From Gammaproteobacteria bacterium (GTDB taxonomy: Bacteria; Pseudomonadota; Gammaproteobacteria; Pseudomonadales; Azotimanducaceae), in the NCBI GenBank assembly GCA_026707735.1, contig JAPOWH010000003.1, positions 62,001 through 126,000 on the forward strand: a stretch of 64,000 nt of DNA, given 5' to 3'. Within the stretch, counting starts at the first letter, position 1, and each line of letters opens with the position of its first letter. The notes under the pieces were generated by a model. The model ran no database searches and was not told the origin of the DNA. It worked only from the letters and a program-made list of their open reading frames with translations. Positions 10,038-54,973 of this stretch are shown here, piece by piece. Both the position numbers and the translations under genes were made by a program.

Positions 10038-12116
10038 ATGAATGCAGTAGCGTCTGGGCGTGTACGTTCAATCGGTTTGGTAACGGTAGGGGTCGTAGTT
10101 GGGGCTTCACTGTCGGCTTTTGTATTCATTGCTCTATTGAACGGCAAGGATCAAACACAAGATCAATCAGTTCGAGAAGGGGGTCTTGGCACTGAAAGTT
10201 CGACAGAATCAAGTGTCGTGGGCGATTCTGCTGTGGGTTCACTCAGTGGGCCGAATTCAGAACCAATAGCAAACTTGAGTGACATCTCTCGTCATTCGAG
10301 CGATTCTGATAGGAAAGTGTTGCTCCATAGTCTCGTTGCGAGGGCAAACGAGGCACAACTCTCTGACTTGTTGGGGCAACTTGACAGCATAGGATCCGCC
10401 AATATGCATGAAGTCGCGGAGACAACACTTGTTCAACGATTGGCTTCACTGAATCCAAAACGCGCGATGACTTACGTGAATGAGCAACCGGGGCTGCGAC
10501 GTGACCAATTGACATCGACCGTGTTCGGTGAGTGGGCGTCTACAAACTTGGACGAGGCTGTAGCACATGCCGGATCAGTGGAGGAATCGCAAAAGCTTGC
10601 GGCGTTGCGAGGTATTCTCAATACACGTGACGACTTGTCGGAAGGTCTTCAACGCCAGATTGCGAAGCAGCTTGGAAACGAGCAATACGCTTTGGATCTG
10701 CGAGACGATGCAGTTGCTTCCACATCCATCGACAATCCCGTCGCTGCGTGGAATGCACTGATTAACGATGGTCACGAAGACATTGCACAGTTGGGAACGT
10801 TATTGCAAGTTGCTGAGGCACTGGTGGACAAGGAAGGGGTTCGAGCCCTCAACCAGATCAATGACTCAAACATTGAGAAAAGCACTCGAAACGCCATCCT
10901 CCTCTCTGTGTTGCACAATGCGGCTCAGAGAGATCCTCAAGGTGCTTTCCAGGAAGCGATGTTCCTTGATCGCGATGCTCAAGAAATTGCCCTCCCAGCT
11001 ATCGTAAGAGTTTGGGCTGGATTGGATCCATTGGTCGCCTTCAATGCCGTTTCGAATCTCAACAAGAGCAGCGTGCGCTCGAGTCTGCTGGAAACCCTAA
11101 TAGCAGCATGGGCAGAAAACGACCCCCAAGGTGTGTTTGACAATCTCGAACTCTTGCCCGAGAAATTGCGCGAAAAAGGTGAAGAACAGGCGATGCTAGC
11201 GATTGCGCGCTCCTCACCGGCGGACGCAATTCAGTTCTTGTCCACATTGGAGGACTCAAAGCAAAAGCGCGAACTTGCCAAAACAATCGCTACAAATTGG
11301 GCACAGATAGATGTTTACGAAGCACTGGATTGGGCAACCTCCTCGCAATTATCTGATGAGCGAACTCGGCACGATGTACTTGCCATTATTTTGCGAGAGC
11401 TTGCTGCCAAGGATCCCGAATTGGCATTTCAAACTGCGTTGATTCAGCCCATGGGCAGTGATGCACGTGGTCGCGAGCGAGGATTGGAAGCGGATGTTGT
11501 TGCTCAAATCGCGAGAGTTGACATAAACAAAGCGCTTGAAATGTTGTCTCTAGTGCGCGACGGCTACACACTTCTTGAGGCGTACAGGTCCGTCGGCAAA
11601 GAGCTAGTTCTGGTTGGTGAGTATGATCGCGCGCTCCAACTCGGAGAGCAATTGCCCGAAGACTCACAAAGCAGCTACTTCAACACTGTTCTAAACCTGT
11701 GGGCTAAAGAGGAACCAGAAGTAATGTTCGATTCGATAGCGAGTATTTCAACTCCTGAACTACGTACACAAGCTGCAATGAACCTGTTGACGCACAATGC
11801 GCTACATGCACAGATACTTGACGATGAACAACTAAAGCAGCTTACCAGCTACCTAGGAGGAGGGTCATTCATCCAATTTAGTGACGGCGATGTAATGGTT
11901 ACAAGTCGCACAATAACACCAGACGAACTGTCTAGTCTATCGGTGAGAGAAACCCCTAGGCCCATAGACACGGAAGCAATAGGGAGAGAACTCGAAAAAG
12001 CACTTGAAAGTGCTATAGGCAACGCACTCAGTGGTGCAATTGGCGACGGCGAAGCCACAGTCGTCAAACGGGTCGAGGTAAACACGGTAAAACAGGAAGA
12101 AGAGGATTCTGAATAA
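10038..12116 (+). CDS. Membrane-anchored WAxxDP helical-repeat protein, paralogue 1
   Basis: 692 residues of unknown function. One membrane helix (about 12-34) is followed by a Ser/Gly-rich acidic stalk, then the conserved entry motif D-I-S-R-H-S-S. About eight alpha-helical repeats follow, each centred on W-A-x-x-D/E-P-x-x-A (for example V-W-A-G-L-D-P-L-V-A-F, A-W-A-E-N-D-P-Q-G-V-F, L-W-A-K-E-E-P-E-V-M-F). The C-terminus carries S-F-I-Q-F-S-D-G-D-V-M-V-T and an acidic tail. Two full-length paralogues lie at 47295 and 52979. The predicted topology is N-in with the repeats in the periplasm. It lies downstream of a TlpA-ABC ATPase-permease set on the same strand. A scaffold or adaptor role is only a guess. 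Confidence 0.85.
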   Translation: MNAVASGRVRSIGLVTVGVVVGASLSAFVFIALLNGKDQTQDQSVREGGLGTESSTESSVVGDSAVGSLSGPNSEPIANLSDISRHSSDSDRKVLLHSLVARANEAQLSDLLGQLDSIGSANMHEVAETTLVQRLASLNPKRAMTYVNEQPGLRRDQLTSTVFGEWASTNLDEAVAHAGSVEESQKLAALRGILNTRDDLSEGLQRQIAKQLGNEQYALDLRDDAVASTSIDNPVAAWNALINDGHEDIAQLGTLLQVAEALVDKEGVRALNQINDSNIEKSTRNAILLSVLHNAAQRDPQGAFQEAMFLDRDAQEIALPAIVRVWAGLDPLVAFNAVSNLNKSSVRSSLLETLIAAWAENDPQGVFDNLELLPEKLREKGEEQAMLAIARSSPADAIQFLSTLEDSKQKRELAKTIATNWAQIDVYEALDWATSSQLSDERTRHDVLAIILRELAAKDPELAFQTALIQPMGSDARGRERGLEADVVAQIARVDINKALEMLSLVRDGYTLLEAYRSVGKELVLVGEYDRALQLGEQLPEDSQSSYFNTVLNLWAKEEPEVMFDSIASISTPELRTQAAMNLLTHNALHAQILDDEQLKQLTSYLGGGSFIQFSDGDVMVTSRTITPDELSSLSVRETPRPIDTEAIGRELEKALESAIGNALSGAIGDGEATVVKRVEVNTVKQEEEDSE

Positions 12117-12142
12117 CAGGAATCCTCGATTGACGTCCCTCG

Positions 12143-12181
12143 GACCGGGCGAGCCGACATTGATTGGTGGCGAGCCCGGTC
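12143..12181 (+). terminator. Probable terminator after helical-repeat gene 1
   Basis: GACCGGGC (12143-12150) pairs with GCCCGGTC (12174-12181), an 8-bp GC-rich stem with a 23-base loop, followed by a weak T-containing tail (TATTTCC). It begins 26 bases after the stop codon. Confidence 0.5.
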
Positions 12182-12196
12182 TATTTCCTGCTAAGC

Positions 12197-12231
12197 ACCT
12201 GACCCACTAGTTCGTAACGAAAGGATCAGGT
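12197..12231. other. Stem-loop
   Basis: ACCTGA (12197-12202) pairs with TCAGGT (12226-12231). Inner pairs CC/GG and TTCG/CGAA lead to a TAA loop. It may be a second terminator or part of the structured RNA region that follows. Confidence 0.35.
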
Positions 12232-12290
12232 TTAGTTCGCATTTTCAATCAATGCAATTGAATGTGTGAATCAGTTAAGTCTCACAGCGA

Positions 12291-23669: not shown

Positions 23670-25613
23670 ATGAAAACACTACTTGGATTGCTAGCAGCGA
23701 CACTTGCGGCAGCATTGCTTATGTCCTGCAGCCAAAGTCCAGTCAATTCGTACACCATTACTGGCGAGCTCATTGTCTTAGAGAACGAGGAGCTAGAAGA
23801 CACAGATTCCGACGCCAGTGCAACGGCTGAACCGCCCGCACATCTGGACTCTTCAACGGTTACAGTGTCGGTTACTTACGAAACTACGAACAACGAGGGA
23901 GAAGTTGAAGAAGTCGAGGTTTTGTCCGGAAAATTCGTAAATGGCAGTCTCGAATATACGGGAGAAGTTGAAGAACCGACTGCCGTAAAAATTGCCGTCG
24001 ATACCGGCGAAGACGATCCTCTCACAGCATCTGCACTGATTGCTCCAGGCGAAGAAATCAAGTTCGTGGTTCTGGATCACTGGGAATCCTATCGTGATGA
24101 TCAGTTGGCAATGGTAGGAAGTTCGCGTATGTCCAAGGATTCCTCCAAGAAGTTCTCCATATCGGGAGATTTCAGTTCCGTGGATGAAGATCTGTCAAAT
24201 GTTGTTGTGTCTGCATCAGCATGGAAATTCGACGATGAAGGGGAACGTCAAATTGTGGACCTCGGTGACGTAATGTTGGTCGACGATACTTTCCTATTCG
24301 AAGGTGACGTTGATGAACCAACTCGCATATCAATCTATGCGGGTCCCGTGGGGCCGTGGTATGCGTCGACCAATTTCATATTGGTCGAGCCCCAGTCCGA
24401 AATGACCCTCACTCAGCGTGGAACAGCACCAGAACTTCTTGCAACGTCAGGATCTGGAATGCACGCAAAGATCATTGAGAGCTGGCAACAGTCGCAGGAC
24501 TACTTGTCGGTATTTGACAAATACTACGAGGGTTACGCGCAATACATCGCAGAGTGGGAAGCGCGGCAGAATGCAGCTGAAGAGAGTTCGGAAGAGAATC
24601 AAGACTCGGACGACGAGGGTTCGTCGGATGAGCAGGTGGCTACTAGTGCATCAAGTGACGATGCTTCCGCAGACTCAGATTCAGCCGAATCGGCACAAGG
24701 TGACCAATCCGCTACCACTGAAGAGGAAGAAGAGGAAGTTGCGCTCGCGTCTGCAGAGCCTGTCACACCAGCTGCCGAGGGATGCGAACACGTCACGGTG
24801 GCAGCTGAACAGACCAGATCAGCCACAAGTTCGACGGCTTCATTGCCCGAGTACTACAAGTATCGAGACGAAATGGACGAAATTCAAATGTCCGCTCTCA
24901 AGAAGATTGCAACTGAAGCGGAGGACCCATTTGAATCACTTCTTGCCATGGAACTGGGCGCATTCTCCAGAGCAGAAGGTCAAAGCGACGCACTCCCTGT
25001 GTACGACAATCTTGCTACACGATTCGAAGACGAAAGCATCTTGCGTCGCATAGCCCAAGGACGAGAAAGGACTGTCTGGTTCATTGAATCTCGTCAAAAC
25101 GACGAAAGAGTCCAGCCCGGTCAGAAGGCACCAGAATTCACTCTCGCCAATTTGGAAGGAACAGAAGTCGCTCTCTACGATGTGTTAGCTGAAAAAGAGC
25201 TCGTACTCATTGACTTTTGGGCATCCTGGTGTGGTCCCTGCATTGCTGATTTTCCCGAACTGAAGAAGCTATACAGTGCATACGACTCTCACGGCTTTGA
25301 GATCGTAGGAGTATCCATCGACAGTGCATTCGAGGATTGGCAAGAAGGATCTATCGAGCATGAGCTTCCTTGGATGAACCTTGGCGAGATGGATGGATGG
25401 GAAGGATCCACAGCAACCTCCTACGGTGTGCTAGGAATTCCCGCCGGTTTCTTGCTTGACCCCAACGGCTGCATTCTTGAGAAGCGCGTTCGTCCCGCCA
25501 GATTGCAAGAGGCTCTCATAGCTCAATTCGGTGAAGTGTCCGAACTGACCGAGCCTAGCGAAGAAAGCGATTCTGACGCGACCGATCCTGGCTCTGACGA
25601 AATGGGCGGATAA
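23670..25613 (+). CDS. TlpA-type lipoprotein with DUF4369-like front and acidic linker
   Basis: 647 residues. Lipobox M-S-C with C20. The N-terminal half contains two beta-rich units, the second starting with S-S-R-M-S-K-D-S-S-K-K-F-S-I, resembling DUF4369-type domains seen before TlpA domains in other bacteria. A very acidic Ser/Glu/Asp linker (about 305-370) follows. The C-terminal thioredoxin domain has F-W-A-S-W-C-G-P-C (W520-C524) and the cis-Pro G-I-P-A-G-F. It is probably an envelope thiol-disulfide reductase of unknown target. The next gene is a shorter paralogue, and a third thioredoxin lies at 31791. Confidence 0.85.
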   Translation: MKTLLGLLAATLAAALLMSCSQSPVNSYTITGELIVLENEELEDTDSDASATAEPPAHLDSSTVTVSVTYETTNNEGEVEEVEVLSGKFVNGSLEYTGEVEEPTAVKIAVDTGEDDPLTASALIAPGEEIKFVVLDHWESYRDDQLAMVGSSRMSKDSSKKFSISGDFSSVDEDLSNVVVSASAWKFDDEGERQIVDLGDVMLVDDTFLFEGDVDEPTRISIYAGPVGPWYASTNFILVEPQSEMTLTQRGTAPELLATSGSGMHAKIIESWQQSQDYLSVFDKYYEGYAQYIAEWEARQNAAEESSEENQDSDDEGSSDEQVATSASSDDASADSDSAESAQGDQSATTEEEEEEVALASAEPVTPAAEGCEHVTVAAEQTRSATSSTASLPEYYKYRDEMDEIQMSALKKIATEAEDPFESLLAMELGAFSRAEGQSDALPVYDNLATRFEDESILRRIAQGRERTVWFIESRQNDERVQPGQKAPEFTLANLEGTEVALYDVLAEKELVLIDFWASWCGPCIADFPELKKLYSAYDSHGFEIVGVSIDSAFEDWQEGSIEHELPWMNLGEMDGWEGSTATSYGVLGIPAGFLLDPNGCILEKRVRPARLQEALIAQFGEVSELTEPSEESDSDATDPGSDEMGG

Positions 25614-25831
25614 ACCGGGTCACCAACAGTAAAAAAAGGGTTCAGCGTATTGAAGCATTCGCTCAAGTGAGGCAAATTCTTCGGTACGCTGACTCTTGCT
25701 GCTAAAACAATACATCTAGATTAGACTCGGTGCATTTGCGCGCACCGGATCTACTCAAGACTCAAGCGTATCTCCTTCACGGGATACACCTGCGATTTGT
25801 TGGCATTACCGAATTGAGGGGGAGTCGTCAA

Positions 25832-43065: not shown

Positions 43066-45903
43066 CTATCCTCCCGCGGGAAGAAGCTCGTTTTGTCGCG
43101 CTTCACGCGAATCGAAGCGCTTGTTCCATTCTGAACGATGGTTTGCGGGTAGCACTTCCACCGCCGTCACCTTGTACTCGGGACAGTTTGTCGCCCAATC
43201 GGAGAGATCGGTAGTAATGACGTTGGTGCCAGTGGAAGGATGGTGAAAGGTTGTGTAGACCACTCCTGGTTTCAGGCGCTCGGTCAATCGGGCTTGTAGC
43301 GTGATCTCACCCATTCGACTTCGGATTGAAACCCAATCGCCCAGTCGAATGCCTCTAACCTCTGCATCCGAGGGATGGATTTCCAAATGATCCTCTTCCA
43401 GCCACGTGTTGTTTTGAGTGCGCCGAGTCTGCGTACCAACGTTGTATTGAGCCAGCCTTCTGCCAGTGGTTAGCAGTAGAGGGAACTTTCGGTTCGTCCG
43501 TTCCTTGGTCGGTTCGTACTCCGTCGTGATAAACATCCCCTTGCCGCGAGCAAAGCTGTCGACATGCATTATTGGAGTACCCAACGGTGCTGACTCGTTG
43601 CAGGGCCACTGGACGCTGTTGACTCTGTCCAAGTAGTCAAAGGAAACTCCTGAAAACATCGACGTAAGGCTCGCCAACTCGTCCATGATGTCGGAACTGC
43701 TCGTGAAATCCATCGGATAGCCCATGGCATTGGCCAGCTTCTGAACTGCCTCCCACTCCTGCAAACCGGTTGCGGCCTCCATTACAGGCCGAACTCTGTT
43801 GATTCGCCGTTCCGCGTTGATGAAGGTGCCGTTCTTTTCTAGAAACGTGGTTCCGGGCAAAAACACATGTGCAAGTTTGGAAGTCTCCGTTAGGAAGAGG
43901 TCCTGAACGATCACGCATTCCATCGAAGAGAGAGCTTGCTCGACATGCTGTGTGTTGGGATCGGATTGAAGGAAATCTTCACCCTGAATGAACATGCCCT
44001 TGAAATTGTCCGCGCAGGCTTCGTCGAACATGTTAGGAATGCGAAAACCCGGTTCTGGATCTATGTCGACATTCCATGCATGAGAAAACTGTTGCCGGGC
44101 TACTTCGTCGGTGATCTGACGATAGCCTGGCAACTCGTGGGGAAACGAACCTACATCCACTGCCCCTTGGACGTTGTTCTGTCCTCGAAGCGGATTGACG
44201 CCGACGCCCTCGCGACCAATGTTTCCGGTGGCCATAGCAAGATTTGCCATGGCTATTACCATCGTCGATCCTTGGCTGTGTTCCGTTACCCCCAATCCGT
44301 AGTAGATGGCGGCGTTTCCAGCTGTTGCATAGAGTCGAGCCGCATCTCGAATGTCCTCAGCATCAACACCGGCGATTTTCGCTACGTTCTCTGGACTGTT
44401 TTCGTCTTGACGAACGAAATCGCACCACTCTTGAAAGGAATCAACGTCGCAACGGTCTCGCACAAACTCCAGATCAATCAAGTCCTCCATAAGAGCGACA
44501 TGGGAGAAGGAGTTCATTACAGGAACGTTGGTGCCGGGCAACAATGGCAGGTGGTACGCTGCTTCAACGTGAGGAGATCGCACCAAATCTATCTTGCGAG
44601 GGTCCAAGACGATGAGTTGCGCTCCTTGCGACACTCGCTTTTTGATTTGCGATGCGAACACGGGGTGGCCCTCAGTAGGATTGGCGCCGATAACGACGAT
44701 TACATCTGCCTCTCGCACGGAATCAAAGTTCTGAGTCCCGGCTGAAGTGCCAAAAGTCTGCTTCAACCCGTAGCCTGTAGGCGAGTGGCAGACTCGCGCG
44801 CATGTATCGACGTTATTGTTTTGGAATGCAGTACGTACCAGTTTTTGAACTGCGTAAATGTCCTCGATGGTCGTTCGTGACGATGTGATGCCTCCAATCG
44901 ACTTGCGCCCATATTTCTCTTGGATGGCCAACAGCCGATCAGCTGCAGTCTGAATTGCGGTATCCCAATCCACGACTTGCCACTGGTCGTCGACGGAGTC
45001 GCGAATCATGGGCTTGGTGATTCGCTCCGGGTGATTTGCGTAGCCCCAGGCGAAACGGCCCTTCACGCATGATGCTCCATGATTTGCCATTCCATCCTTG
45101 AACGGAACCATGCGAACGAGCTTGTCACCCTGCAGTTCAGCCTTGAACGAACACCCGACGCCGCAGTAAGCACACGTTGTCAGTACGCTACGGTCTGGAA
45201 CTCCATGCTCAATAACGCTCTTTTCCATGAGCGTTGCAGTGGGGCAGGCTTGAATGCATGCGCCGCAAGCTACACATTCGGAGTCGATGAACGACTCGGC
45301 CGAAGTGGCCACCTTGGATTCGAATCCGCGCCCATCAATGGTGAGAGCATAAGTTCCCTGCACCTCTTCGCACGCTCTCACGCACCGTGAACAAACAATG
45401 CACTTGGATGGATCGAAGGAAAAGTATGGATTGGAAGAATCCAACGGAGCAACCAAGTGATTGGCTCCCTCGGCGTAGCGCACTTCCCTCAGTCCAACGA
45501 CTCCAGCCATATCCTGCAGTTCGCAGTCTCCATTTGCAGAACAGGTCAGGCAGTCCAGCGGGTGGTCGGAAATGTAGAGCTCCATGACTCCACGACGAAT
45601 CCTCTCCAATTGATCGGTTTGCGTCCGAACTTGCATGCCCGGGGTGACCGGTTCTGTGCAGGAAGCAATCAGCCCATTTCGTCCCTCGATTTCGACTAGA
45701 CATATTCGGCAGGATCCGAAAGCCTCCATATTGTCGGTGGCGCACAGCTTGGGTACGGGCACGCCAGCAGAAATGGCAGCCCGCATGACTGAGGTGCCAG
45801 GGGCAACGGCAACCTTGTGGCCGTCAACAGACAAGTGGACTTTTGGTTGATCGGAACGCAAATCCCGTTCTGGGGTACCAAAATCTTGCTCAATGAGTCT
45901 CAC
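43066..45903 (-). CDS. fdsA: NAD-dependent formate dehydrogenase alpha subunit
   Basis: 945 residues. An N-terminal 2Fe-2S ferredoxin (C-A-T-D-N-M-E-A-F-G-S-C-R-I-C), a His/Cys cluster (H-P-L-D-C-L-T-C) and two 4Fe-4S motifs (C-I-V-C-S-R-C, C-V-A-C-G-A-C) precede the C-A-Y-C-G-V-G-C cluster of the bis-MGD domain. The active-site residue is Cys in R-V-C-H-S-P-T, not selenocysteine. It oxidises formate to CO2 and passes electrons via FdsB to NAD. Start is GTG at 45903. Its normal upstream partners fdsG and fdsB lie 9 kb away on the same strand (55074-57013). Confidence 0.95.
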   Translation of the reverse strand: MRLIEQDFGTPERDLRSDQPKVHLSVDGHKVAVAPGTSVMRAAISAGVPVPKLCATDNMEAFGSCRICLVEIEGRNGLIASCTEPVTPGMQVRTQTDQLERIRRGVMELYISDHPLDCLTCSANGDCELQDMAGVVGLREVRYAEGANHLVAPLDSSNPYFSFDPSKCIVCSRCVRACEEVQGTYALTIDGRGFESKVATSAESFIDSECVACGACIQACPTATLMEKSVIEHGVPDRSVLTTCAYCGVGCSFKAELQGDKLVRMVPFKDGMANHGASCVKGRFAWGYANHPERITKPMIRDSVDDQWQVVDWDTAIQTAADRLLAIQEKYGRKSIGGITSSRTTIEDIYAVQKLVRTAFQNNNVDTCARVCHSPTGYGLKQTFGTSAGTQNFDSVREADVIVVIGANPTEGHPVFASQIKKRVSQGAQLIVLDPRKIDLVRSPHVEAAYHLPLLPGTNVPVMNSFSHVALMEDLIDLEFVRDRCDVDSFQEWCDFVRQDENSPENVAKIAGVDAEDIRDAARLYATAGNAAIYYGLGVTEHSQGSTMVIAMANLAMATGNIGREGVGVNPLRGQNNVQGAVDVGSFPHELPGYRQITDEVARQQFSHAWNVDIDPEPGFRIPNMFDEACADNFKGMFIQGEDFLQSDPNTQHVEQALSSMECVIVQDLFLTETSKLAHVFLPGTTFLEKNGTFINAERRINRVRPVMEAATGLQEWEAVQKLANAMGYPMDFTSSSDIMDELASLTSMFSGVSFDYLDRVNSVQWPCNESAPLGTPIMHVDSFARGKGMFITTEYEPTKERTNRKFPLLLTTGRRLAQYNVGTQTRRTQNNTWLEEDHLEIHPSDAEVRGIRLGDWVSIRSRMGEITLQARLTERLKPGVVYTTFHHPSTGTNVITTDLSDWATNCPEYKVTAVEVLPANHRSEWNKRFDSREARQNELLPAGG

Positions 45904-46159
45904 TACTTGCTATACAAAGCGAATTGCTCGCCTTTGATCGAGAAAGCGGTAAAGCGTACCCATCTCGATGCAATTGGTCAAATTCCTTGCGAACGCAGCA
46001 TTTTCTCATGCTTGTTTCTATAGTGGCTAGCGTCTCAGCACGAGTAGCTGCGCTCCAGCTATCAGTGCAGGGATTGGGAGACGATATCGTGCGTTAACTT
46101 AACGATTGTTTTGTGTTCCGACAGTAGAATCTAGAGCCTTCGACGGAACCCAACTGAAA

Positions 46160-47167
46160 ATGATCCTACGAATCTCTAAATCGGCTGCCTCGCTAGTACT
46201 CGCGGTGCTTATGGCTTCGACTGTTGCCGCGCAATCAGACTCCGGGGTAGATTTCTTCGACGGAAAGTTCGAAGAAGCTCTGGAACAAGCCAAGAGTGTG
46301 GAATTACCACTCTTCATGTACCTGTCAATTCCAAATTGTGCGCCCTGTGAGTTTGTGGAAAAGAACGTGTTTACCGACACTGAAGTTGGGGAATTCATGA
46401 AAGCGCGATTTGTCAGCTTCAAGATTGACGCGTATGACGAATCAGCCAATGGACCGGCTATTGCAAAGCGCTACAGCGTGGGTTCGTATCCAACGTACTT
46501 GATTCTTGACCATGAGGGAGCATTGCAACAGCGTGCTACAAGCTCCATGAACTCTAGCAACTTCATGCGATCGATTAGCTGGCTTACCGGAGAGATCAGC
46601 TCTCCCATGGACGACCACGACGCGTTGTATGAAGCGGGAGAGCGCGGCGACGAATTTCTTCAGGAGTATCTGCTCGATTCAATATTGGCGCTGTCCCTGA
46701 TGCCGAAGGACATAGCTAATTGGGAAGAAAACATGAGGGCATATGGCAACGCTCAGGACAAGTACACATCCATCATGAATCAATACATGACGAATAAGTC
46801 GCCCCAAGATCTGATCAATTCGACTGACTTTCGGATTATTTCTAGATACGCCAAGTATCGTAACGACAAAGGGGTCGTATTTGTGATCGACAATTTTGAA
46901 GGCTTTGTGGATGCCACCTCCATGGAGGAAGTTAGCGGCTATTTGCTTGCTGTAATTGCCGACAACGCTTTCTTTAGAGCTATGGAGGGAGACCCGACCT
47001 ACATCGAACTAATCGATTCACTAGAAGAGGAACCGCTCAAGCGGGCAACTGAATTCAAACGCAGCGTTGATCGAGAGAGCGGTCTGTTGCCTGAAAACCA
47101 ACGGGAACACCTCGCTGTAACTTTCTCGGAGGCCACGAAAGAAGCAGCTTCGGAGGAACAGGAATAG
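46160..47167 (+). CDS. Secreted thioredoxin-like protein
   Basis: 335 residues from ATG 46160, chosen because a signal peptide then follows directly (M-I-L-R-I-S-K-S-A-A onwards, ending V-A-A-Q). Thioredoxin domain with C60-A-P-C63 (N-C-A-P-C-E-F-V-E) and cis-Pro S-Y-P-T-Y-L-I-L. The remaining 170 residues are helical with an acidic tail, not recognised. It is the first gene of the block between fdsB and fdsA, directly before helical-repeat paralogue 2 on the same strand. Confidence 0.78.
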   Translation: MILRISKSAASLVLAVLMASTVAAQSDSGVDFFDGKFEEALEQAKSVELPLFMYLSIPNCAPCEFVEKNVFTDTEVGEFMKARFVSFKIDAYDESANGPAIAKRYSVGSYPTYLILDHEGALQQRATSSMNSSNFMRSISWLTGEISSPMDDHDALYEAGERGDEFLQEYLLDSILALSLMPKDIANWEENMRAYGNAQDKYTSIMNQYMTNKSPQDLINSTDFRIISRYAKYRNDKGVVFVIDNFEGFVDATSMEEVSGYLLAVIADNAFFRAMEGDPTYIELIDSLEEEPLKRATEFKRSVDRESGLLPENQREHLAVTFSEATKEAASEEQE

Positions 47168-47238
47168 TCCATGCAATTGCACAACATTGTTGCACTGAGC
47201 CGTTCCCTGAATTCGTCGTGAGCCCTCCATGGGTGGGT

Positions 47239-47266
47239 TTGACCGCATCTGTGAGGAAAGTACTAT
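47239..47266 (+). promoter_or_regulatory. Sigma-70 promoter of helical-repeat gene 2
   Basis: TTGACC (47239-47244, five of six matches) and TACTAT (47261-47266, four of six) with a 16-base spacer. The expected start is about 20 bases before the ATG at 47295. The gene can thus be transcribed separately from the thioredoxin gene. Confidence 0.45.
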
Positions 47267-47294
47267 TTGGTGAGGTCCACCAACTGGGAATTCC

Positions 47295-49178
47295 ATGAAC
47301 GCGTCCAGAAATAGACGATTGCCTCTTGCTACAGGAGCATTTGGCATGATTTTGGGAATTGGTTTGTGCGTAGCGTTGTACTTGGTGTTTACTCCAGCGC
47401 CTGCTGAGAATCAAGAAGTATCTGTTCCCACCGGGTCCTCAGCGTTAGATGGCAATGAGAGTAACCAGGAAGATGTTGCTATTCAATCTGTTGAATCCAA
47501 CGCGCCGCCAGCGGATGTGTCAATGGAAAGTCTTGGAGACCTTTCTCGGCTCTCCAGCGATTTTGAACGAATTCAATCGGTTTATTCCCTTTTGGCACAG
47601 GTGGACAAGAGGCGTCTACTCTCGCTTCTAGAGGAATCCGTGAGTGTCGACAAGTCTGTTCGCCCGATCATTCAACAGGCTCTCGTGCACCGGCTAACGA
47701 CTATCGATCCACAGGGTGCTCTGACTCAAGCTCGCAACCTTGAAGGCACTGAAACTGATGAGCTTTTGAAATCCATATTCAGTTACTGGGCAAGAGTCGA
47801 CTTGGACGAGGCAATTGCAGAATCCAAGACTCTAGACCCGCATGAGATTCGCGCGGCAATGAGAGGGATTTTTGTGTCTCGACGCGAGATGTCGGATGCT
47901 GACCGTCTCAAAATTGGTCAATCGCTTGGTCAACACGAATTCGCAGAATCGTGGAACACAACCCTAAAAGCAGAGGAGTACGCCAGAAACCCAGAGGAGT
48001 CATGGTACGAAGTTGTGGATAGGGCTCAAGGTGACTCTACTCAAATCACTCTTCTCAACACCATTGCAAAGGCTTGGTTTCGCAAGGATGGACTGGTAGT
48101 GATCGATAGGATCATCGAGTCGACTACCAACCAGAGGGCGCTTGCTGTGGTCCTCCACTCCGTGTTTCAGTTAGCCGTACAAAGCAATCCAAGAAATGCC
48201 TTGGAGCGAGCATTGCAACTCGAAAACGATCCTTGGGACTCCATTGTCGGAAGCGTGGCGAATGCATGGGCGCAGACTGATCCCAAGCGGGCTCTTGAAG
48301 TGATCCAACGACTTGCGCCAGAGAACAAGCGTCAAAGACTGCTGGAAAACACCATGCAAACATGGGCGAGCGGAGAGGACCCACTAGTGATGCTTGAAGC
48401 ACTTGCTGGAATGGATAAGGAAATGCAGGAACTAGGTACGCCAGGAGCACTGTCAATGCTTGCCACCAAGTCTCCCAAGGAAGCAGCTAATTTGATCGGA
48501 CGCGTGGTCGATGTAGGAGAAAAGAGACATATCGCCTCGCAAATTGTTTGGAGCTGGTCCCAAAGAGAACCAACCGAAGCTCTGCATTGGGTGTTGAATG
48601 ATCCCCACACTGAGCCCTTTCGGCATGAACTGATGAGCAGTACGTTGGCGAATTTGGCAGATGAAGATCCTGGACTCGCAATGTCAGTTGCATTGGCGCA
48701 GCCTGCTGAAGAAACCGAAGTGGGTTTAGAGTTCTTTGTAATTTCTTCGCTTGCGTATGTCGACGTCGGGCAAGCGCTTGAGTTCTTGCCTCAGGCACGC
48801 AACAGTAAAACCAGAATGTATGCATACAGCACAGTGGGAATGCAAATGGTTTCAAGTGGCAATGGAGATGAAGCCTTGGAACTCGGAGAGAATATTGGCG
48901 AGGGAGATCGCGAGCTCTACTATCGAATGCTCGCATTCTCGTGGACCTCAAAGGACCCGGATGGGCTTCTTGAATCGATAGACAAGTTTCCCTCAGCTGA
49001 ATCCAAGTCTAAGGCAGCGGCAATTCTTACCCTCATGGGCAAGATGACTTCCGGATTGAAGGACGAGCAAATTGAAAAGGCAAGCAAGTACCTGCTTCAG
49101 GAAGATATTGAGGAACTCGAGAAGGGGGGAATGGGATTGCTGAATATGGGAGACATGATGGAACTAATGAACATGTAG
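47295..49178 (+). CDS. Membrane-anchored WAxxDP helical-repeat protein, paralogue 2
   Basis: 627 residues. Membrane helix at about 10-32, stalk, then the entry motif G-D-L-S-R-L-S-S and about eight repeats (Y-W-A-R-V-D-L-D-E-A-I, A-W-A-Q-T-D-P-K-R-A-L, S-W-S-Q-R-E-P-T-E-A-L, S-W-T-S-K-D-P-D-G-L-L). It aligns along its length with the proteins at 10038 and 52979 but lacks their C-terminal S-D-G-G/D and acidic tail, ending instead in a Met/Gly-rich stretch (L-L-N-M-G-D-M-M-E-L-M-N-M). Function unknown; a repeat scaffold in the periplasm is likely. Confidence 0.82.
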   Translation: MNASRNRRLPLATGAFGMILGIGLCVALYLVFTPAPAENQEVSVPTGSSALDGNESNQEDVAIQSVESNAPPADVSMESLGDLSRLSSDFERIQSVYSLLAQVDKRRLLSLLEESVSVDKSVRPIIQQALVHRLTTIDPQGALTQARNLEGTETDELLKSIFSYWARVDLDEAIAESKTLDPHEIRAAMRGIFVSRREMSDADRLKIGQSLGQHEFAESWNTTLKAEEYARNPEESWYEVVDRAQGDSTQITLLNTIAKAWFRKDGLVVIDRIIESTTNQRALAVVLHSVFQLAVQSNPRNALERALQLENDPWDSIVGSVANAWAQTDPKRALEVIQRLAPENKRQRLLENTMQTWASGEDPLVMLEALAGMDKEMQELGTPGALSMLATKSPKEAANLIGRVVDVGEKRHIASQIVWSWSQREPTEALHWVLNDPHTEPFRHELMSSTLANLADEDPGLAMSVALAQPAEETEVGLEFFVISSLAYVDVGQALEFLPQARNSKTRMYAYSTVGMQMVSSGNGDEALELGENIGEGDRELYYRMLAFSWTSKDPDGLLESIDKFPSAESKSKAAAILTLMGKMTSGLKDEQIEKASKYLLQEDIEELEKGGMGLLNMGDMMELMNM

Positions 49179-49366
49179 AGTAAACATGTGACAGGGGAGC
49201 TAGCTTCAGCGTTGGTCCTGTTCGATGAAATCGGACGCAACTACTATCAGAACAAAAACTGTTTGAGAGAAACTATTGGTATCGAGCAGGATTGTTGAGG
49301 ATGCAGTCTCGACTCTTCATCCATTCACTGAATTTTTTTGACTTCAGTCAAGCCCATTTGGTCCGA

Positions 49367-52300
49367 CTAATTGGACTCAATTTTCGACCACCGTACAGCA
49401 TCAGCGTAAATCCTACGGTGTCTCCATGTTTGACTCACGCCAACAACATCGACGTCAACTGGTCCACCTTCCAATTCGAACTCATCGATGACATTCCACC
49501 CCTGATTCGCTTCTCGTCCATCCAGTTCCGCCTTCCACGAGTCGTTTTTGTTGTTCACGTCTAGGAGGTACTTGTATTCGCGTCCCGATGGAAACCATTC
49601 GTCGTGATATGGTAGGTGGTATTCGAGCTTCCATGTGGATGACTCGGGCAATACAGCAGTAAATCTCACCGTTGGGAAGGTGTTTCTTCCTGGTTCCATC
49701 TCCGCGGTTGTCTTGCGGTAGTCGCCGTAAGCAAGGTGAAAATCGCGTCGCGACCATATACCTCGCCTGCGAATTTGCACGGGGAGCCCCGCATCTATGT
49801 CTGTTTTAACGAAGGGTTCGCGAAACCAACTTGCAGGGCCCATGTTTACTGGCTCCGAGAAGGCGGATTCTGATTGAAACACCCTGAAGCCTGGGCTTAA
49901 ATCGTCGACAACGATTCCATCTTCAGCTGGTGTCCACCTGCTGTCTTCGAAGATCGGCGGTAAATCCATGTCTGTCGGTTCATTTCCAGGGATCGTGTTG
50001 ACTGCGAGGGCCCAGGGACCCCGATTGAGTGAAAGGGCGGGACTCATGCGTGCCTGAGCTACTTGATCAGAGGTAATCAAGTTTATGAGTCTGGCGGATT
50101 CTCCATCAACAAAAAATGCTTCGGAATTTTGAAAGTTTGGACGTATCCGAGGGTTTGGTTCATTGAACGAGTATTGAATCACCGCTACGCCAGGAGATGG
50201 TTCCATGTTCCTCAAGTTGACTGATGCGACCCATTGAGGATTGCCGTTCTCATCATCTTTGAGCCTGGTGTTGCTAACGCCGGAAGCCTTTAAACCCGCT
50301 AACCTAGAGGTCTCTAGCCAATCTGTGAGAAAAGGTTCGAACTTAATGCCGTGGTTCATGGCGGCTGCAACTAGATCTTCGAGTGTGTAATTTCGACCCG
50401 CAAAGTCGCTTTGAACGGAAAGTATCCAAGCCAAGAGCTCTTTTTCTTCGTTTGCAGCCAACAACCCACTAGCAATCTTGCTACTCTTGAGATGCATAAC
50501 CTCCAAGTCATGCTGAGCTCCATTTCCTGACGGAAATTCAGCCAAAGAAACGCGCTCCATATTGCTCCACACGGATGGCCGCGATCCAAAATAGTTAACG
50601 GAGGCAAGGTCATTGGAGCGAACATATATCTCGCCGTATCTGCCTACATCTTCTGCCGCCCATACCGTTCGATCCGGATTGAGATTTGTCAATTCTGAAA
50701 TGTATAACGTAGAGTAGAACGTGGAAAATCTAGGATAAATATTGAACAGTCTGCCCATCAGAGATAGGACTACCTGATCCAACGATTGTGCATGTCGTCC
50801 CTGAGCCGTAGTGGTATGGGACCAAAACCGGTTCGGCAAACCCATCCAGATGTTCTCGGTCAATATCGCACTATTGAAAAACCCATGAAGAAACGAAAGT
50901 TCTGCTCCTGCCCGTTCCTGTTCGTTTTCGTAGTGCTCTGCGACTCTCTGATAGGCGAGATCGATCCTAGCTCTAGGGAATCCGTGTTCCTTCAGCATGA
51001 CAATACCCGGAAGTGAATTCGCAGAGCCCATATTCCACCCTCCACGGACAGTGCGAAGTCGTCGCGGCACCTCAACCAAACGCATCTCTTGGTGGGCAAT
51101 GGCAAGTCCCTTGCCGGTGTACGTGTCGATTCGGTTCTCAAACTCGGCTGCAAACTCGCTATCCTTCCCGCGCAGCCCGAGTAGATTCCCCAAATGGCGT
51201 TTGTGTAGGTGCATCTCAAACTTGAGGTCGTCCACAATCAACGATGAACTGACAAAGTTGGAGGCGAACAGCGCGACTTCGTGCACTGGCTTCTCAGGGG
51301 CTACATTGAAAACACCGGTGCTGCTCTCCGTGTCCAATTCAGAACCGTGCGCCACGAGAGTCCATTCGCTTCGCGATAGGTGTACAACAAGATTTACCCG
51401 AAAGTAGTCAAAGCCTCGTTGGGCAGCTTCATAGTCGTTGTTGACAGGCCCAGGAGTTGGATACCAATGTGCCCCAGGCATTAGCGCGACGTATCTTCTT
51501 GTAAACACCGCACCGTCGGTACCAAGCAGTGATGCTGCAACGGAAGGCACGTCGTTTTCGTTTAGGTAGTCCACGGCGCCGTCAAAGTATGCAAATCGTG
51601 GATCTGGTATCCCTTTGGCTTGAACGCGCAATTCGTGGTCGACGAAATCCCTTGACGCACCATCGACCGGAATTTGCAACAGCCCATTTTCAAAGCTATA
51701 GTTCGTTGGATTCCCATCTAATTCAATGTTGTCGATACTCATTGAGGGATTAAACGAGAACACAAGAGAATTCAATTGAAGGTCTCGGCTTTCTACCTTT
51801 AGCAGCACGTCAATCCCGAGACTCCTTCCGGGATCTATATGCACGGTCCCAGAGATCTCTTTCACATCAATGTCGCCGTTCCACGTGATTGATTTGTGGG
51901 CTTCTAGCCATTTTTCGTTTTGCGATGCGGGAGTGAATGCAAGAACTGCAGCAAACACAATAGCACTGACACAAAGGACAGCAGCAACCCCTATGCTCGA
52001 GAAGTTGGACAGGAGAGAACTGCTATCTCGTCGCCTGTGAAGGACACTGGCCACGACGGTTAGTCCAATCGCGCCACAGACTGTCCCAAAGCGAACTAAT
52101 AGAGTTTCTAGCTTTGGAAATTCAGGCAGCACGTCGGAGATGAACAGAACATCATTGGATGACGGCGAAACAATCGCCCGCATGGCATAGGACGATTCCA
52201 ATAGCAACACCATCCAGGCGAAAATCGCCAGCGCGCCAACACCCAATGCGGCCACTCGTACACGTAGCACACTTGAAAGAAAAACAGTGAATGCACACCA

Positions 52301-52807
52301 AATGAATAGCATGGCTGGCAAATCGAACACTAACAGATTGAACAGTGAATGCATCTGAAAAGCTTCTCCGAAACCGAAGCCTGCCAAGGCAGCGATTAAT
52401 CCGAATCCGTGAGCTGTCAGAATAAGAGCGGCTGCGAAAATCCAGAGCAAGAAGGTGTATCCCAGAGTCCGACCTGCGAAGTACTCAAGATTTGAGACAG
52501 GTTTCGAGTTGAGAACCTCATCAATCCGATTCCTGGATTGCTGCTGGGGAGAGTCAAACACCATCAACAGCACAACCAATTGAAACATCAAGAAAAAAGT
52601 GGGTTCGATGCTGCCGAGCAAGTAGAACGGCGTTGCGGTAGAAGGTGTGTAGGGAGCAACGAAACTTAGAGATAAACAGGCGAATGTGTAGCCAACACCA
52701 GAAATGAGTGCGATCACAATTGCTGCTACCCAAAACCGCACAAGACGAACGCCAGTTCGTGCTTCTGAGCCCGCAACGTTCAGTATGTTCGCTGCAGATA
52801 GACCCAT
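49367..52807 (-). CDS. ABC-2 permease fused to a catalytically dead M1-like domain
   Basis: 1146 residues. The first 300 hold about seven membrane helices with a cytoplasmic loop F-D-S-P-Q-Q-Q-S-R-N-R-I-D-E (ABC-2 type). The long ectodomain resembles the M1-peptidase part of ABC-2/M1 fusion proteins, including G-W-N-M-G-S-A-N-S-L-P-G-I-V-M and a helical part, but no H-E-x-x-H is visible where the zinc site should be. The last 100 residues look like a golvesin-type domain (H-R-R-I-Y-A-D-A-V-R-W). No ATPase is adjacent. It lies on the opposite strand between helical-repeat genes 2 and 3, and is divergent from gene 3. Confidence 0.72.
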   Translation of the reverse strand: MGLSAANILNVAGSEARTGVRLVRFWVAAIVIALISGVGYTFACLSLSFVAPYTPSTATPFYLLGSIEPTFFLMFQLVVLLMVFDSPQQQSRNRIDEVLNSKPVSNLEYFAGRTLGYTFLLWIFAAALILTAHGFGLIAALAGFGFGEAFQMHSLFNLLVFDLPAMLFIWCAFTVFLSSVLRVRVAALGVGALAIFAWMVLLLESSYAMRAIVSPSSNDVLFISDVLPEFPKLETLLVRFGTVCGAIGLTVVASVLHRRRDSSSLLSNFSSIGVAAVLCVSAIVFAAVLAFTPASQNEKWLEAHKSITWNGDIDVKEISGTVHIDPGRSLGIDVLLKVESRDLQLNSLVFSFNPSMSIDNIELDGNPTNYSFENGLLQIPVDGASRDFVDHELRVQAKGIPDPRFAYFDGAVDYLNENDVPSVAASLLGTDGAVFTRRYVALMPGAHWYPTPGPVNNDYEAAQRGFDYFRVNLVVHLSRSEWTLVAHGSELDTESSTGVFNVAPEKPVHEVALFASNFVSSSLIVDDLKFEMHLHKRHLGNLLGLRGKDSEFAAEFENRIDTYTGKGLAIAHQEMRLVEVPRRLRTVRGGWNMGSANSLPGIVMLKEHGFPRARIDLAYQRVAEHYENEQERAGAELSFLHGFFNSAILTENIWMGLPNRFWSHTTTAQGRHAQSLDQVVLSLMGRLFNIYPRFSTFYSTLYISELTNLNPDRTVWAAEDVGRYGEIYVRSNDLASVNYFGSRPSVWSNMERVSLAEFPSGNGAQHDLEVMHLKSSKIASGLLAANEEKELLAWILSVQSDFAGRNYTLEDLVAAAMNHGIKFEPFLTDWLETSRLAGLKASGVSNTRLKDDENGNPQWVASVNLRNMEPSPGVAVIQYSFNEPNPRIRPNFQNSEAFFVDGESARLINLITSDQVAQARMSPALSLNRGPWALAVNTIPGNEPTDMDLPPIFEDSRWTPAEDGIVVDDLSPGFRVFQSESAFSEPVNMGPASWFREPFVKTDIDAGLPVQIRRRGIWSRRDFHLAYGDYRKTTAEMEPGRNTFPTVRFTAVLPESSTWKLEYHLPYHDEWFPSGREYKYLLDVNNKNDSWKAELDGREANQGWNVIDEFELEGGPVDVDVVGVSQTWRHRRIYADAVRWSKIESN

Positions 52808-52978
52808 ACTAGTGTTGCATGTAACCGGAGATAGCTAGCGCTCATCGACAATTTGTCGCCTGTGGGAATAAGATGCTGCAACGACAAGTTTGGTCAACGA
52901 TTGATGGCCCGATAGTTTAGACGAAACCCTTGCAGTAATATTGGTCTAACTTGATGAACTTTCGGATAAATTCTTTCC

Positions 52979-54973
52979 ATGGTCGCACGCAAGTCTTCAA
53001 AGCTCCATTTAGCGGGCGTCCTGACGCTTGGATTCGCGTTGGGTGCCGTTGTTGCCGGAGTCACTATTTTCAGCATTTCCAATTCTTCCGATCCATCCAA
53101 AAGCGCCGGTGTAATTTCTTCAGGCTCTGGTAATTCCGATTCTCAGCTCTCGCTTGATGCTAGTCTAGGCAGTGCGTCCGCTGAATTCTTGGCCGATGGG
53201 ACTAGAGTCCAGAGCTTGATTGATGTTTCTCGATTGGCCAGCGAATTTGAGCAATCTGCGGCACTTTACCCTTTGTTGCTTGGTGCGGACAGGCAGGAAC
53301 TCTTAGAGTACATCGAGCAATCGAAGGAAATTAGTCCGCCCGCCCTGCAGCACTCGATGCAGGAGTCGATATTCCAACGACTTGCAACAGTTGATGGAAA
53401 TGCGGCATTGGCTCAAGCTAAGAAATTCCCCAAGCATCAACAAGATCCACTCATTAGGGCGATCTTCATGGAGTGGTCCAACACAGACTTGGATAAGACT
53501 GTGAAGGCGGCAAAGTCCCTCGATGGCCCGCAGCAAATTGCGGCTCTACAAGGCATTTTGCAATCGAGAACCGACTTGTCTGAAGGCTTGCGCAGAGAAA
53601 TCGCAAGAGACCTTGGCAATGAGCAAATTGCGATTGAAATGATCGGCCAATTGCGTGCGATGGAGCTGATGGATAATCCCGAAACAGCCTGGTTCGCAAT
53701 GGTCAGCGATACGAACCAGGAAGTAGCCCAACCAGGGCTTCTGATACAGATTGGAAATGCCTGGGTTCGACAGCAAGGACTGAGTGTGCTTGGAAAGATC
53801 AGTGAGTCGTTGACTGATTGGCGAACAAGATCTACTGTTGTGGGGTCACTTATCCGCTCTGCGACACTCGCGAATCCTCAAGACGCGCTCAACCAGGCTC
53901 TGCGTATGCAGAGTCACGAAGGAGAATGGGCTCCCATCGTCGCTCGGGAGTGGGCTCGCTCTGAGCCGCGCACAGCATTTGACGCGGTAACCAACGTTTC
54001 CCCAAGTGGCTTGCGTAGAACCTTGCAGGAGTCAGTTGTGAGATCTTGGGCACAAAATGATCCACACATACTTCTCGAAGATTTGTCGCTGCTGCCAAAG
54101 AGCCTGCAAGATCTTGCAACTGAGCAAGCGATATTGTCGATCGCCAAGAATGAACCACTTGAAGCTGTGGATCTCATGGCGAGTGTGGAGGACGACAGCA
54201 GTCGTCACATGATTGCCTATTCCGTAGTGTCGAGCTGGTCCAATCTTGACCCGGTTGCCGCAGTAAATTGGGTATTGAGCAATCCCGATCTTGAGCGCAT
54301 GCGCAATGAATTGCTTGCCGTGGTGTTTCGCAATCTTGCATTGGAGAATCCTCAGCTGGCCATGGAGTTGGCGCTCAAGCAGCCGATCGAGCAGCACCAA
54401 CGGGGATTGGAAGCTATAGTCATTGGAAGATTGGCACAGGTTGACCTTGAACACGCCCTCGCTTTGCTTTCCCAGGTGAGACAGGGGCAGACTCAGATTG
54501 CGGCGTTTATGTCTGTGGGTTCCCAACTTGTGCGCAACAACAACATGGACCGAGCTCTCAAATTGGGTGAGCAACTAGGTGCGGAATGGCGCGACTCCTA
54601 CTACCAGTCGATCATGTCGACTTGGGCAAACATGGACCCTGAAGGTTTGCTGGCCACCCTCGACAAGTTGCCGTCGGCAGCTACGAAGTCTAAAGCAGCT
54701 CTAAGTCTGGCGCGTTCAAACCAATTTCGAAAGATTTTGACAACCGACCAAATTGCATACGCAAAGACCTACCTCACTGAAAAAGACGCAGAGAGAATCG
54801 ATACCTCTCTTTGGCATAGCTTTAGCTATTCAGACGGAGGGGTTTTCGTGACCACCGACCTTTCTGCGGACTCAGTAGTTGCAACTCCCGAAGTAATAGT
54901 CACGGGGCAGGGCGTCGAACCGCTTATTCGGTACGAGATTCAATCAAGGCTCGACGAGGAAGACGAGGAGTAA
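52979..54973 (+). CDS. Membrane-anchored WAxxDP helical-repeat protein, paralogue 3
   Basis: 664 residues. Membrane helix at about 8-32, Ser-rich stalk, entry motif I-D-V-S-R-L-A-S and repeats with W-A/S-x-x-D/E-P (E-W-A-R-S-E-P-R-T-A-F, S-W-A-Q-N-D-P-H-I-L-L, S-W-S-N-L-D-P-V-A-A-V, T-W-A-N-M-D-P-E-G-L-L). The segment L-R-R-E-I-A-R-D-L-G-N-E-Q closely matches L-Q-R-Q-I-A-K-Q-L-G-N-E-Q of paralogue 1, and both share the S-D-G-G/D and acidic C-terminus (D-E-E-D-E-E). It is thus nearer to paralogue 1 than to paralogue 2. Function unknown. Confidence 0.85.
   Translation: MVARKSSKLHLAGVLTLGFALGAVVAGVTIFSISNSSDPSKSAGVISSGSGNSDSQLSLDASLGSASAEFLADGTRVQSLIDVSRLASEFEQSAALYPLLLGADRQELLEYIEQSKEISPPALQHSMQESIFQRLATVDGNAALAQAKKFPKHQQDPLIRAIFMEWSNTDLDKTVKAAKSLDGPQQIAALQGILQSRTDLSEGLRREIARDLGNEQIAIEMIGQLRAMELMDNPETAWFAMVSDTNQEVAQPGLLIQIGNAWVRQQGLSVLGKISESLTDWRTRSTVVGSLIRSATLANPQDALNQALRMQSHEGEWAPIVAREWARSEPRTAFDAVTNVSPSGLRRTLQESVVRSWAQNDPHILLEDLSLLPKSLQDLATEQAILSIAKNEPLEAVDLMASVEDDSSRHMIAYSVVSSWSNLDPVAAVNWVLSNPDLERMRNELLAVVFRNLALENPQLAMELALKQPIEQHQRGLEAIVIGRLAQVDLEHALALLSQVRQGQTQIAAFMSVGSQLVRNNNMDRALKLGEQLGAEWRDSYYQSIMSTWANMDPEGLLATLDKLPSAATKSKAALSLARSNQFRKILTTDQIAYAKTYLTEKDAERIDTSLWHSFSYSDGGVFVTTDLSADSVVATPEVIVTGQGVEPLIRYEIQSRLDEEDEE

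What the first reader, a model, noticed from the sequence alone, without database searches (positions are those of the whole stretch)
10038..54973. Three dispersed paralogues of an uncharacterised membrane-anchored WAxxDP helical-repeat family
The proteins at 10038-12116, 47295-49178 and 52979-54973 share an N-terminal membrane helix, the entry motif x-D-x-S-R-x-x-S, a conserved middle segment (L-R-G-I-x-x-x-R-x-D-L-S-E-G-L) and about eight repeats around W-A-x-x-D/E-P. I know similar W-A-x-x-D-P repeats only from unannotated proteins, mainly in Verrucomicrobia-type bacteria, and no function. Three copies in 64 kb indicate an important, expanding family.
Basis: partly seen in the sequence, partly recalled or inferred. 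Interest (0 to 1): 0.75.

Follow-up and report, generated by a model that had tools for sequence, protein, structure and literature searches.

The report
Huge family of membrane-anchored helical-repeat proteins
The three look-alike genes belong to a protein family, unnamed in the libraries searched, that has multiplied to dozens of copies per genome in about half of one bacterial genus, often as two-gene pairs, and its helical, membrane-anchored members look like docking scaffolds on the outer face of the inner membrane.

Summary
P0001, P0002 and P0003 (10038-12116, 47295-49178, 52979-54973) are full-length paralogues (34-35% identity to P0003) with no Pfam or NCBIfam match near a cut-off. The window's 3.37 Mb genome holds at least 52 near-complete copies. 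Nine other genomes of the genus give 35-112 matches; eight give 0-7, and in five of those the copies lie essentially at one syntenic locus. The wider taxonomic family has divergent homologues; a phylum sample almost none. A confident model (pLDDT 87) is an unbroken run of helices behind an N-terminal membrane helix with a positive-inside signal. These membrane helices carry GxxxG in 112 of 167 cases against 45 in shuffles. Across the genus, first and second genes of two-gene clusters fall into separate clades, though single-genome tests are not significant. Copies two and three lie in a 9170-bp stretch splitting a formate-dehydrogenase-like operon that is contiguous in 16 of 16 relatives examined. 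Best reading: inner-membrane-anchored periplasmic alpha-solenoid scaffolds, probably heteromeric, diversified by duplication and dispersal in a mostly ankyrin-rich, possibly host-associated lineage. Clients unknown. Recurrent neighbours: thioredoxin-fold proteins, ABC-2 transporters and a co-expanded permease/M1-peptidase-like family lacking the zinc motif.

The parts
10038..12116 (+). Family copy 1 (P0001, 692 aa), downstream of a thioredoxin / ABC ATPase / ABC-2 permease gene set
10080..10136 (+). Predicted transmembrane helix of copy 1 (hydropathy window), with GxxxG
47295..49178 (+). Family copy 2 (P0002, 627 aa)
47334..47390 (+). Predicted transmembrane helix of copy 2 (hydropathy window), with GxxxG
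52979..54973 (+). Family copy 3 (P0003, 664 aa), the copy modelled
52997..53083 (+). N-terminal helix of copy 3 (residues 7-35), G18 and G22 conserved in 29 of 46 and 41 of 51 copies
53216..54829 (+). Helical-repeat domain of copy 3 (residues 80-617), most 10-residue blocks with pLDDT above 90
7719..9888 (+). TlpA/ResA-like thioredoxin (7719-8336), ABC ATPase (8346-9080) and weakly GldF-like ABC-2 permease (9073-9888); the same gene order precedes a family array in G003
46106..47167 (+). Thioredoxin_7-type protein upstream of copy 2; a homologue (38% over 289 aa) precedes the L015 pair
49367..52807 (-). 1146-aa protein between copies 2 and 3: membrane helices, M1-aminopeptidase-like fold without HExxH, sub-threshold Golvesin_C match; member of a second, co-expanded family
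45904..55073 (.). 9170-bp stretch holding copies 2 and 3, which separates the FdsA-like gene (43066-45903) from the FdsB-like gene (55074-56564); the two genes adjoin in 16 of 16 other genus members searched

Best explanation
SHOWN BY COMPUTATION: an uncharacterised family of mostly 600-700-aa proteins with one N-terminal membrane helix (GxxxG-rich, positive-inside), a low-confidence linker and a long unbroken helical-repeat domain with [WLI]AxxDP-like motifs mostly 31-36 residues apart. It has expanded to 35-112 matches per genome in nine relatives and at least 52 copies in the window's own genome (ten of 18 genomes of one genus), with tandem arrays, two-gene clusters whose order is conserved across species, and dispersed copies. 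INFERRED: the proteins sit in the inner membrane with the solenoid in the periplasm, pair (often A with B) through the membrane helix, and use divergent solenoid surfaces as docking scaffolds for particular envelope or exported proteins; copies differ in what they dock. The recurrent neighbours (thioredoxin-fold proteins, ABC-2 permeases, an M1-peptidase-like permease, large secreted-looking proteins) suggest that clients belong to envelope export, folding or remodelling, possibly in dealings with an animal host.
For: Copies. Model: mean pLDDT 87.4, pTM 0.72, all helical; nearest PDB shapes are alpha-solenoids. Topology: 167 of 176 proteins have an N-terminal hydrophobic helix; the 15 residues before it are more positive than those after in 156 of 167, equal in 6. 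GxxxG in 112 of 167 helices against 44.6 +- 5.1 (maximum 62) in 1000 shuffles; GxxG 31 (46), GxxxxG 45 (43) and GxG 51 (48.5) do not exceed chance. Cassettes: in 37 two-gene clusters the first/second label needs 19 changes on the tree against 29.3 +- 2.3 when order is flipped at random, 0 of 2000 reaching it. Eight consecutive genes in G002 (L150) alternate A and B perfectly. In L026 and L136 same-position genes are 0.59 and 0.82 apart, different-position genes 3.21 and 2.10. Overlaps of 4 bp at three of 20 adjacent G000 pairs. Selection: dN/dS 0.16-0.53 in 11 orthologue pairs. Context: Trx, ABC ATPase, ABC-2 permease, then family gene(s), in G000 and G003; thioredoxin-fold genes upstream of family genes at window 46106, L015 and L101; the M1-like permease adjacent in 3 of 17 cases.
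Against: No ligand, partner or phenotype is known. None of the single-genome cassette tests is significant: G000 two-gene clusters 237 of 2000 and all clusters 386, G007 1029, G003 2000, G008 1027, G002 2000 of 2000; the genus-wide result therefore rests largely on orthologous cassettes conserved across species. For the four-gene arrays L026 and L136 the shuffle test has no power (978 of 3000, the floor); L150 reaches 85 of 3000, its floor; L151 of G008 shows no parity signal (960 of 3000). Many copies are single genes. Several neighbours are plain housekeeping genes (dnaE, a biotin carboxylase, glutamate dehydrogenase, PFK, isocitrate dehydrogenase), so context is mixed. The ABC-2 permease of the window has a match at E <= 1e-20 in only 3 of 16 other genus members, and in G007 no family gene lies beside it. 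The 176 proteins are related, so the GxxxG and topology counts are not independent. One copy has a lipobox-like site; nine lack a clear membrane helix (by my reading five start without a hydrophobic N-terminus and look truncated, four have a weaker one).
Confidence: 0.45

Rival explanations
1. Eukaryote-like repeat proteins for host interaction: the solenoids reach the cell surface or the host and bind host proteins, as proposed for ankyrin and TPR proteins of sponge symbionts; the family is a sequence-novel class of these.
For: Named relatives in the same taxonomic family include MAGs whose prefixes COS, IRC and RHO fit sponge hosts named in PMC8163846 (the prefix-to-host match is my inference). 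Most genus genomes are ankyrin-rich: G000 32 Ank_2 matches, G017 40, against 0-10 in the 13 sampled genomes of other families in the order. Passages of PMC8163846 report ankyrin, LRR, TPR and HEAT repeat proteins enriched in sponge MAGs.
Against: Nearly all copies keep an uncleaved-looking membrane helix, two thirds of them with GxxxG, odd for a secreted effector. Ankyrin and family counts do not track: G006 24 ankyrin matches and 0 copies, G015 29 and 1, while high-copy G011, G005 and G012 have only 3, 7 and 9 ankyrin matches. The host of the window's own genus was not established.
Confidence: 0.2
2. A variable receptor repertoire: paralogues present different binding surfaces, for example to recognise peptides, competitors or self, and copy turnover supplies diversity.
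For: Deep divergence among paralogues (24-39% to P0003), lineage-specific arrays and decayed copies, A-B clusters.
Against: dN/dS is below 1 in all 11 orthologue pairs tested and, at one locus, family genes (0.16-0.20) fall within the range of their neighbours (0.04-0.30). Mean entropy is even along the solenoid (2.37-2.75 bits in nine blocks), with no hypervariable block. Some clusters are kept as orthologues across species.
Confidence: 0.15
3. A duplicating gene block with little cellular function, spreading because duplication and insertion outpace loss.
For: Broken copies, dispersal among housekeeping genes and separation of an otherwise contiguous operon.
Against: Purifying selection and clusters conserved across species; no repeat of 9 bp or more shared between the first 260 and last 200 bp of the inserted stretch.
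Confidence: 0.1

Closest known systems
Tetratricopeptide (TPR) and pentatricopeptide (PPR) repeat superhelices
   Same: Helix-rich repeats of about 31-36 residues; the family profile matches designed PPR proteins (E 1e-12; repetitive designs, so flattered) and a consensus TPR protein (E 2.3e-7) over a few repeats.
   Different: No TPR or PPR model among the hits of the three window proteins; TPR_19 reaches E <= 0.01 in 4 of 52 copies. The signature is WAxxDP, with further conserved sites such as G476, E478 and R501.
LapB (lipopolysaccharide assembly protein B)
   Same: Chains match the family profile weakly over about 55-70 positions (E 1e-3 to 0.16); recalled: one N-terminal membrane helix plus TPRs.
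   Different: Recalled: LapB's TPRs face the cytoplasm and it ends in a rubredoxin-like domain. Here the signal predicts the C-terminal part outside, cysteines are few, and there are dozens of paralogues.
Eukaryote-like repeat proteins of sponge symbionts
   Same: Many repeat-protein genes in a mostly ankyrin-rich, possibly host-associated lineage.
   Different: Sequence outside the Pfam repeat families tested; membrane-anchored; often in two-gene clusters.
Unannotated WAxxDP proteins of Verrucomicrobia
   Same: One Verrucomicrobiales locus (L124) matched query A3 at 24% identity, E 5e-11 (relative to candidate stretches only); its 520-aa ORF has two WAxxDP-like motifs.
   Different: Only distantly related; orthology was not shown.

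Membership tests
TPR (Pfam) | Match to a curated TPR model | tested here: not met
   No TPR model among hits of the three window proteins at E <= 1. Across 52 copies, TPR_19 in 4, TPR_14 in 1, TPR_12 in 1 at E <= 0.01; whether any passes the curated cut-off was not shown
TPR / PPR fold | Tandem helix pairs in a right-handed superhelix of about 34-35-residue units | tested here: inconclusive
   All-helical model, motif spacing mostly 31-36; handedness not measured (no coordinates in hand); best listed PDB TM-score 0.30
HEAT / karyopherin | Match to a HEAT sequence model | tested here: not met
   No HEAT family among the nine Pfam families matched at E <= 0.01 by any of 52 copies
HEAT / karyopherin | Close structural match | tested here: inconclusive
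   Karyopherins rank first and third (E 4e-4, 9e-4, probability 1.00) but listed karyopherin TM-scores by query are only 0.15-0.24
LapB | Cytoplasmic TPR domain and rubredoxin-like metal site (recalled) | tested here: not met
   Positive-inside in 156 of 167; P0001 and P0003 have no cysteine, P0002 one
Sponge-symbiont eukaryote-like repeat proteins | Delivered to the host and altering phagocytosis | not testable with these tools
   Needs experiments; the host of the genus is unknown
Heteromeric two-gene system | First and second genes of clusters fall in separate clades across the genus | tested here: met
   37 two-gene clusters, 19 changes against 29.3 +- 2.3, 0 of 2000 flips
Heteromeric two-gene system | Two-gene units duplicate together within a genome | tested here: inconclusive
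   Clear by distance in L026 and L136 and by alternation in L150, but no single-genome test is significant
Heteromeric two-gene system | Physical A-B association | not testable with these tools
   No complex prediction available

The most novel reading that the evidence does not exclude
A bacterial repertoire of tens of membrane-anchored A/B heterodimeric alpha-solenoid receptors or docking scaffolds, duplicated and moved as two-gene cassettes together with thioredoxin, ABC-2 and probably catalytically dead M1-peptidase-like permease genes: a large, modular, hitherto unnamed periplasmic recognition system in an animal-associated lineage.
Probability: 0.15. Interest if true: 0.88.

Novelty: new variant of a known kind. 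Interest (0 to 1): 0.62.

Why it matters
A family taking roughly 3% of one genome (my arithmetic: 52 copies of about 1.8 kb in 3.37 Mb), and more in some relatives, has no model in Pfam or NCBIfam, the two general libraries searched. Counts of repeat proteins in symbionts that rest on Pfam would largely miss it. The 0-7 versus 35-112 split within one genus gives a natural comparison for asking what such expansions do, and the A-B clusters give a directly testable pairing prediction. The split formate-dehydrogenase-like operon is a concrete dispersal event seen in one genome of the genus only.

Tried and rejected
Rejected: a specific known fold. PDB Foldseek: three hits with E <= 0.001, best listed TM-score 0.30. 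BFVD viral structures: no hit with E <= 0.001, best listed TM-scores 0.32 by query and 0.39 by target. Not found: viral carriage, as far as one viral-contig scan with P0003 can tell (close relatives only). Not found: a recognisable mobile element around copies 2 and 3 (no shared direct or inverted repeat of 9 bp or more between the first 260 and last 200 bp of the 9170-bp stretch, one inverted 8-mer). Inconclusive: promoters and terminators at 46000-55200 (5 and 6 found, 7.8 and 8.7 expected); upstream sequences of the copies, read by eye, show no obvious shared element. Weak: adjacency of the 1150-aa permease family, 3 of 17 against 0.19 expected, P 0.0004; that null places genes by base pair and ignores clustering, a gene-order null would roughly double the expectation (my estimate), and I used 17 of the at least 20 copies. 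The first genome-contig scan, with A1, found no relative. Literature: searches listed no paper that by title or start of abstract describes the family; (WAxxDP and MAG prefixes) returned 0 papers. Only passages of PMC8163846 were read; every other paper was seen as a search listing. G013 (77% complete) was left out of the operon and ABC-2 comparisons. Dropped before counting: 25 copies from other genera and 14 short pieces left out of the 176-protein tree; two dN/dS rows without a value.
Full report
What was claimed and what is there. The three ORFs are present and open. They align end to end, P0001 34% and P0002 35% identical to P0003, share a hydrophobic N-terminus and the D-x-S-R-x-x-S entry motif, and carry 8, 7 and 6 relaxed WAxxDP motifs against about 0.5 in shuffles. 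Pfam and NCBIfam give only weak hits far below cut-off, and P0003 has no PDB sequence match at E <= 1.

Scale. A search of the window's own genome (G000, 3.37 Mb, 29 contigs) gave 60 match places. I fetched 26 regions and ran an iterated HMM over these and the window: 57 ORF pieces, 52 of 472-697 aa and 5 fragments. In the genus, a single-protein search gave 51, 45, 64, 72, 112, 49, 35, 76 and 94 matches in G002, G003, G005, G007, G008, G009, G011, G012 and G014 (a split copy can count twice). A profile search of the other eight gave G001 2, G004 3, G006 0, G010 3, G013 0, G015 1, G016 6 and G017 7 (G016 and G017 include fragments). In G001, G010, G015, G016 and G017 these lie, apart from one weak G017 match on another contig, at one syntenic locus between a PhyH / amidohydrolase / peptide-transport side and a metallophosphatase / PhyH side, as far as the contigs reach. 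G004 has a three-gene cluster behind a member of the 1150-aa family. In the taxonomic family 57 of 200 genomes sampled match at E <= 1e-10, in 18 of 37 genera, 16 of the 57 being the window's own genus. In a phylum sample of 398 genomes G000 and three others match, the three weakly. The other two are a Verrucomicrobiales and a further Gammaproteobacteria MAG, both weak.

Anatomy. The AlphaFold2 model of P0003 with the 52-row alignment has mean pLDDT 87.4: a helix at 7-35, a low-confidence linker around 40-60, then helix after helix from about 80 to 617. I had no coordinates, so superhelix is inferred from this run of helices and from the Foldseek neighbours. Those are alpha-solenoids (karyopherins, SF3b), TM-score at most 0.30 in the listed PDB hits; viral models reach 0.32 by query and 0.39 by target at E 0.006 or worse. 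The family profile touches designed PPR and TPR proteins. In 176 proteins from 15 genomes of the genus, 167 have an N-terminal hydrophobic helix, and in 156 the charge pattern predicts the C-terminal part outside (6 equal); GxxxG is in 112 of 167 helices against 44.6 +- 5.1 in shuffles, while other spacings do not exceed chance. Conserved sites lie at P469, G476, E478 and R501 of P0003 (45 of 52, 44 of 52, 47 of 51, 47 of 50).

Evolution. On a tree of 176 copies, recent tandem arrays (G008, G007, G003) sit beside copies with long branches and orthologues in several species. First genes and second genes form separate clades in L022/L134/L140, in L026 (twice)/L030/L133, in L028/L136/L139, in L015/L152/L096-L101, in L010/L024 and in L105/L143. 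Flipping gene order at random gives 29.3 +- 2.3 label changes against 19 observed over 37 two-gene clusters (0 of 2000); over all 51 clusters of two or more, 45 against 53.8 +- 3.9 (32 of 2000). No single genome is significant: G000 237 (two-gene) and 386 (all), G007 1029, G003 2000, G008 1027, G002 2000 of 2000. So the signal is mainly that clusters keep their order across species; duplication of whole units is shown by distances at particular loci. Same-position genes are 0.59 (L026) and 0.82 (L136) apart against 3.21 and 2.10 for different positions; with four genes a shuffle test cannot go below one third. Eight consecutive genes of G002 (L150; one gap of about 410 bp) alternate perfectly (85 of 3000, about the floor of 1 in 35). 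L151 of G008 shows no parity signal over nine genes (960 of 3000). Orthologues evolve at dN/dS 0.16-0.53 in 11 pairs (the two highest have dS 0.06 or less); at one locus family genes give 0.16-0.20 and neighbours 0.04-0.30.

An insertion caught in the window. The FdsB-like and FdsA-like genes (names recalled from their Pfam domains) adjoin or overlap in 16 of 16 other genus members searched (G013 left out; sequences of five). In G000 they are 9170 bp apart, and that stretch holds a Trx_7-type gene, copy 2, the 1146-aa permease/M1-like gene and copy 3. Its ends share no repeat of 9 bp or more, so the mechanism is not known; a rearrangement that brought the genes in is equally possible.

Neighbours. 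Context is mixed: dnaE, a biotin carboxylase, glutamate dehydrogenase, PFK, isocitrate dehydrogenase and others lie beside copies, but so do envelope-type genes: Trx_7-type proteins (window 46106, L015), a thioredoxin before the pair in L101 with blastp-cluster mates in L098-L100, a TonB_C protein, a TonB receptor, an Ig-domain protein with an autotransporter-like match and a subtilase around the L030 pair, CarboxypepD_reg proteins before the L026 cassettes, and an M23 peptidase. The order Trx, ABC ATPase, ABC-2 permease, family gene occurs in G000 and, with a small ORF between, in G003; G002 has Trx, ABC ATPase, ABC-2 permease, then a Trx_7-like gene on the other strand and two 1150-aa permeases; G007 has the ATPase and permease with no family gene beside them; the other 13 genomes searched lack that permease at E <= 1e-20.

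A second expanded family. Its model (pLDDT 85.2, pTM 0.85) matches M1 aminopeptidases over about 660-710 columns (best E 1.3e-14; TM-score about 0.3 by query, 0.34-0.41 by target). HExxH is present in 1 of 30 sequences, at residue 776 of that one, and GxME in none, so catalysis is unlikely. The Golvesin_C match is below that family's cut-off. Six or so N-terminal membrane helices resemble an ABC-2 permease (my reading).

Interpretation. The best-supported picture is an inner-membrane-anchored periplasmic solenoid that often works in A-B pairs and docks different clients. Location and helical fold are well supported by computation; pairing is supported by gene history across species and by the membrane-helix motif; the docking role and its clients are inference. 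Host interaction is plausible because most genomes of the lineage are ankyrin-rich, but ankyrin-rich members with few or no copies, and high-copy members with few ankyrins, show that the two traits are separable.

Noticed in passing
window 49367-52807 (-): Second co-expanded family: membrane helices + M1-aminopeptidase-like fold, HExxH in 1 of 30 sequences, sub-threshold Golvesin_C end; 6-21 matches in high-copy genomes, 2-4 in low-copy ones.
   Followed up: partly
window 43066-57013: Formate-dehydrogenase-like operon split by a 9170-bp stretch only in this genome; contiguous in 16 of 16 relatives searched.
   Followed up: yes
window 7719-8336, 23670-25613, 25730-27502, 31791-32468: Four proteins of one blastp cluster, with the TlpA/ResA-type thioredoxin at 7719, within one window; of these only the one at 7719 was annotated.
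   Followed up: no
L030:43-14000: A family pair sits between an Ig-domain protein with an autotransporter-like match and a 1632-aa subtilase-type protein.
   Followed up: no
L027, L028, L010, L026:3120-3368 (G000); L097, L098, L100 (other species): Split or truncated family copies, pointing to birth-and-death turnover.
   Followed up: partly
genomes of genus g1: Mostly ankyrin-rich genomes, 0-40 Ank_2 matches, including low-copy species.
   Followed up: partly
L012:8163-10052: One family copy has a lipobox-like site in its N-terminal helix, 1 of 176.
   Followed up: no
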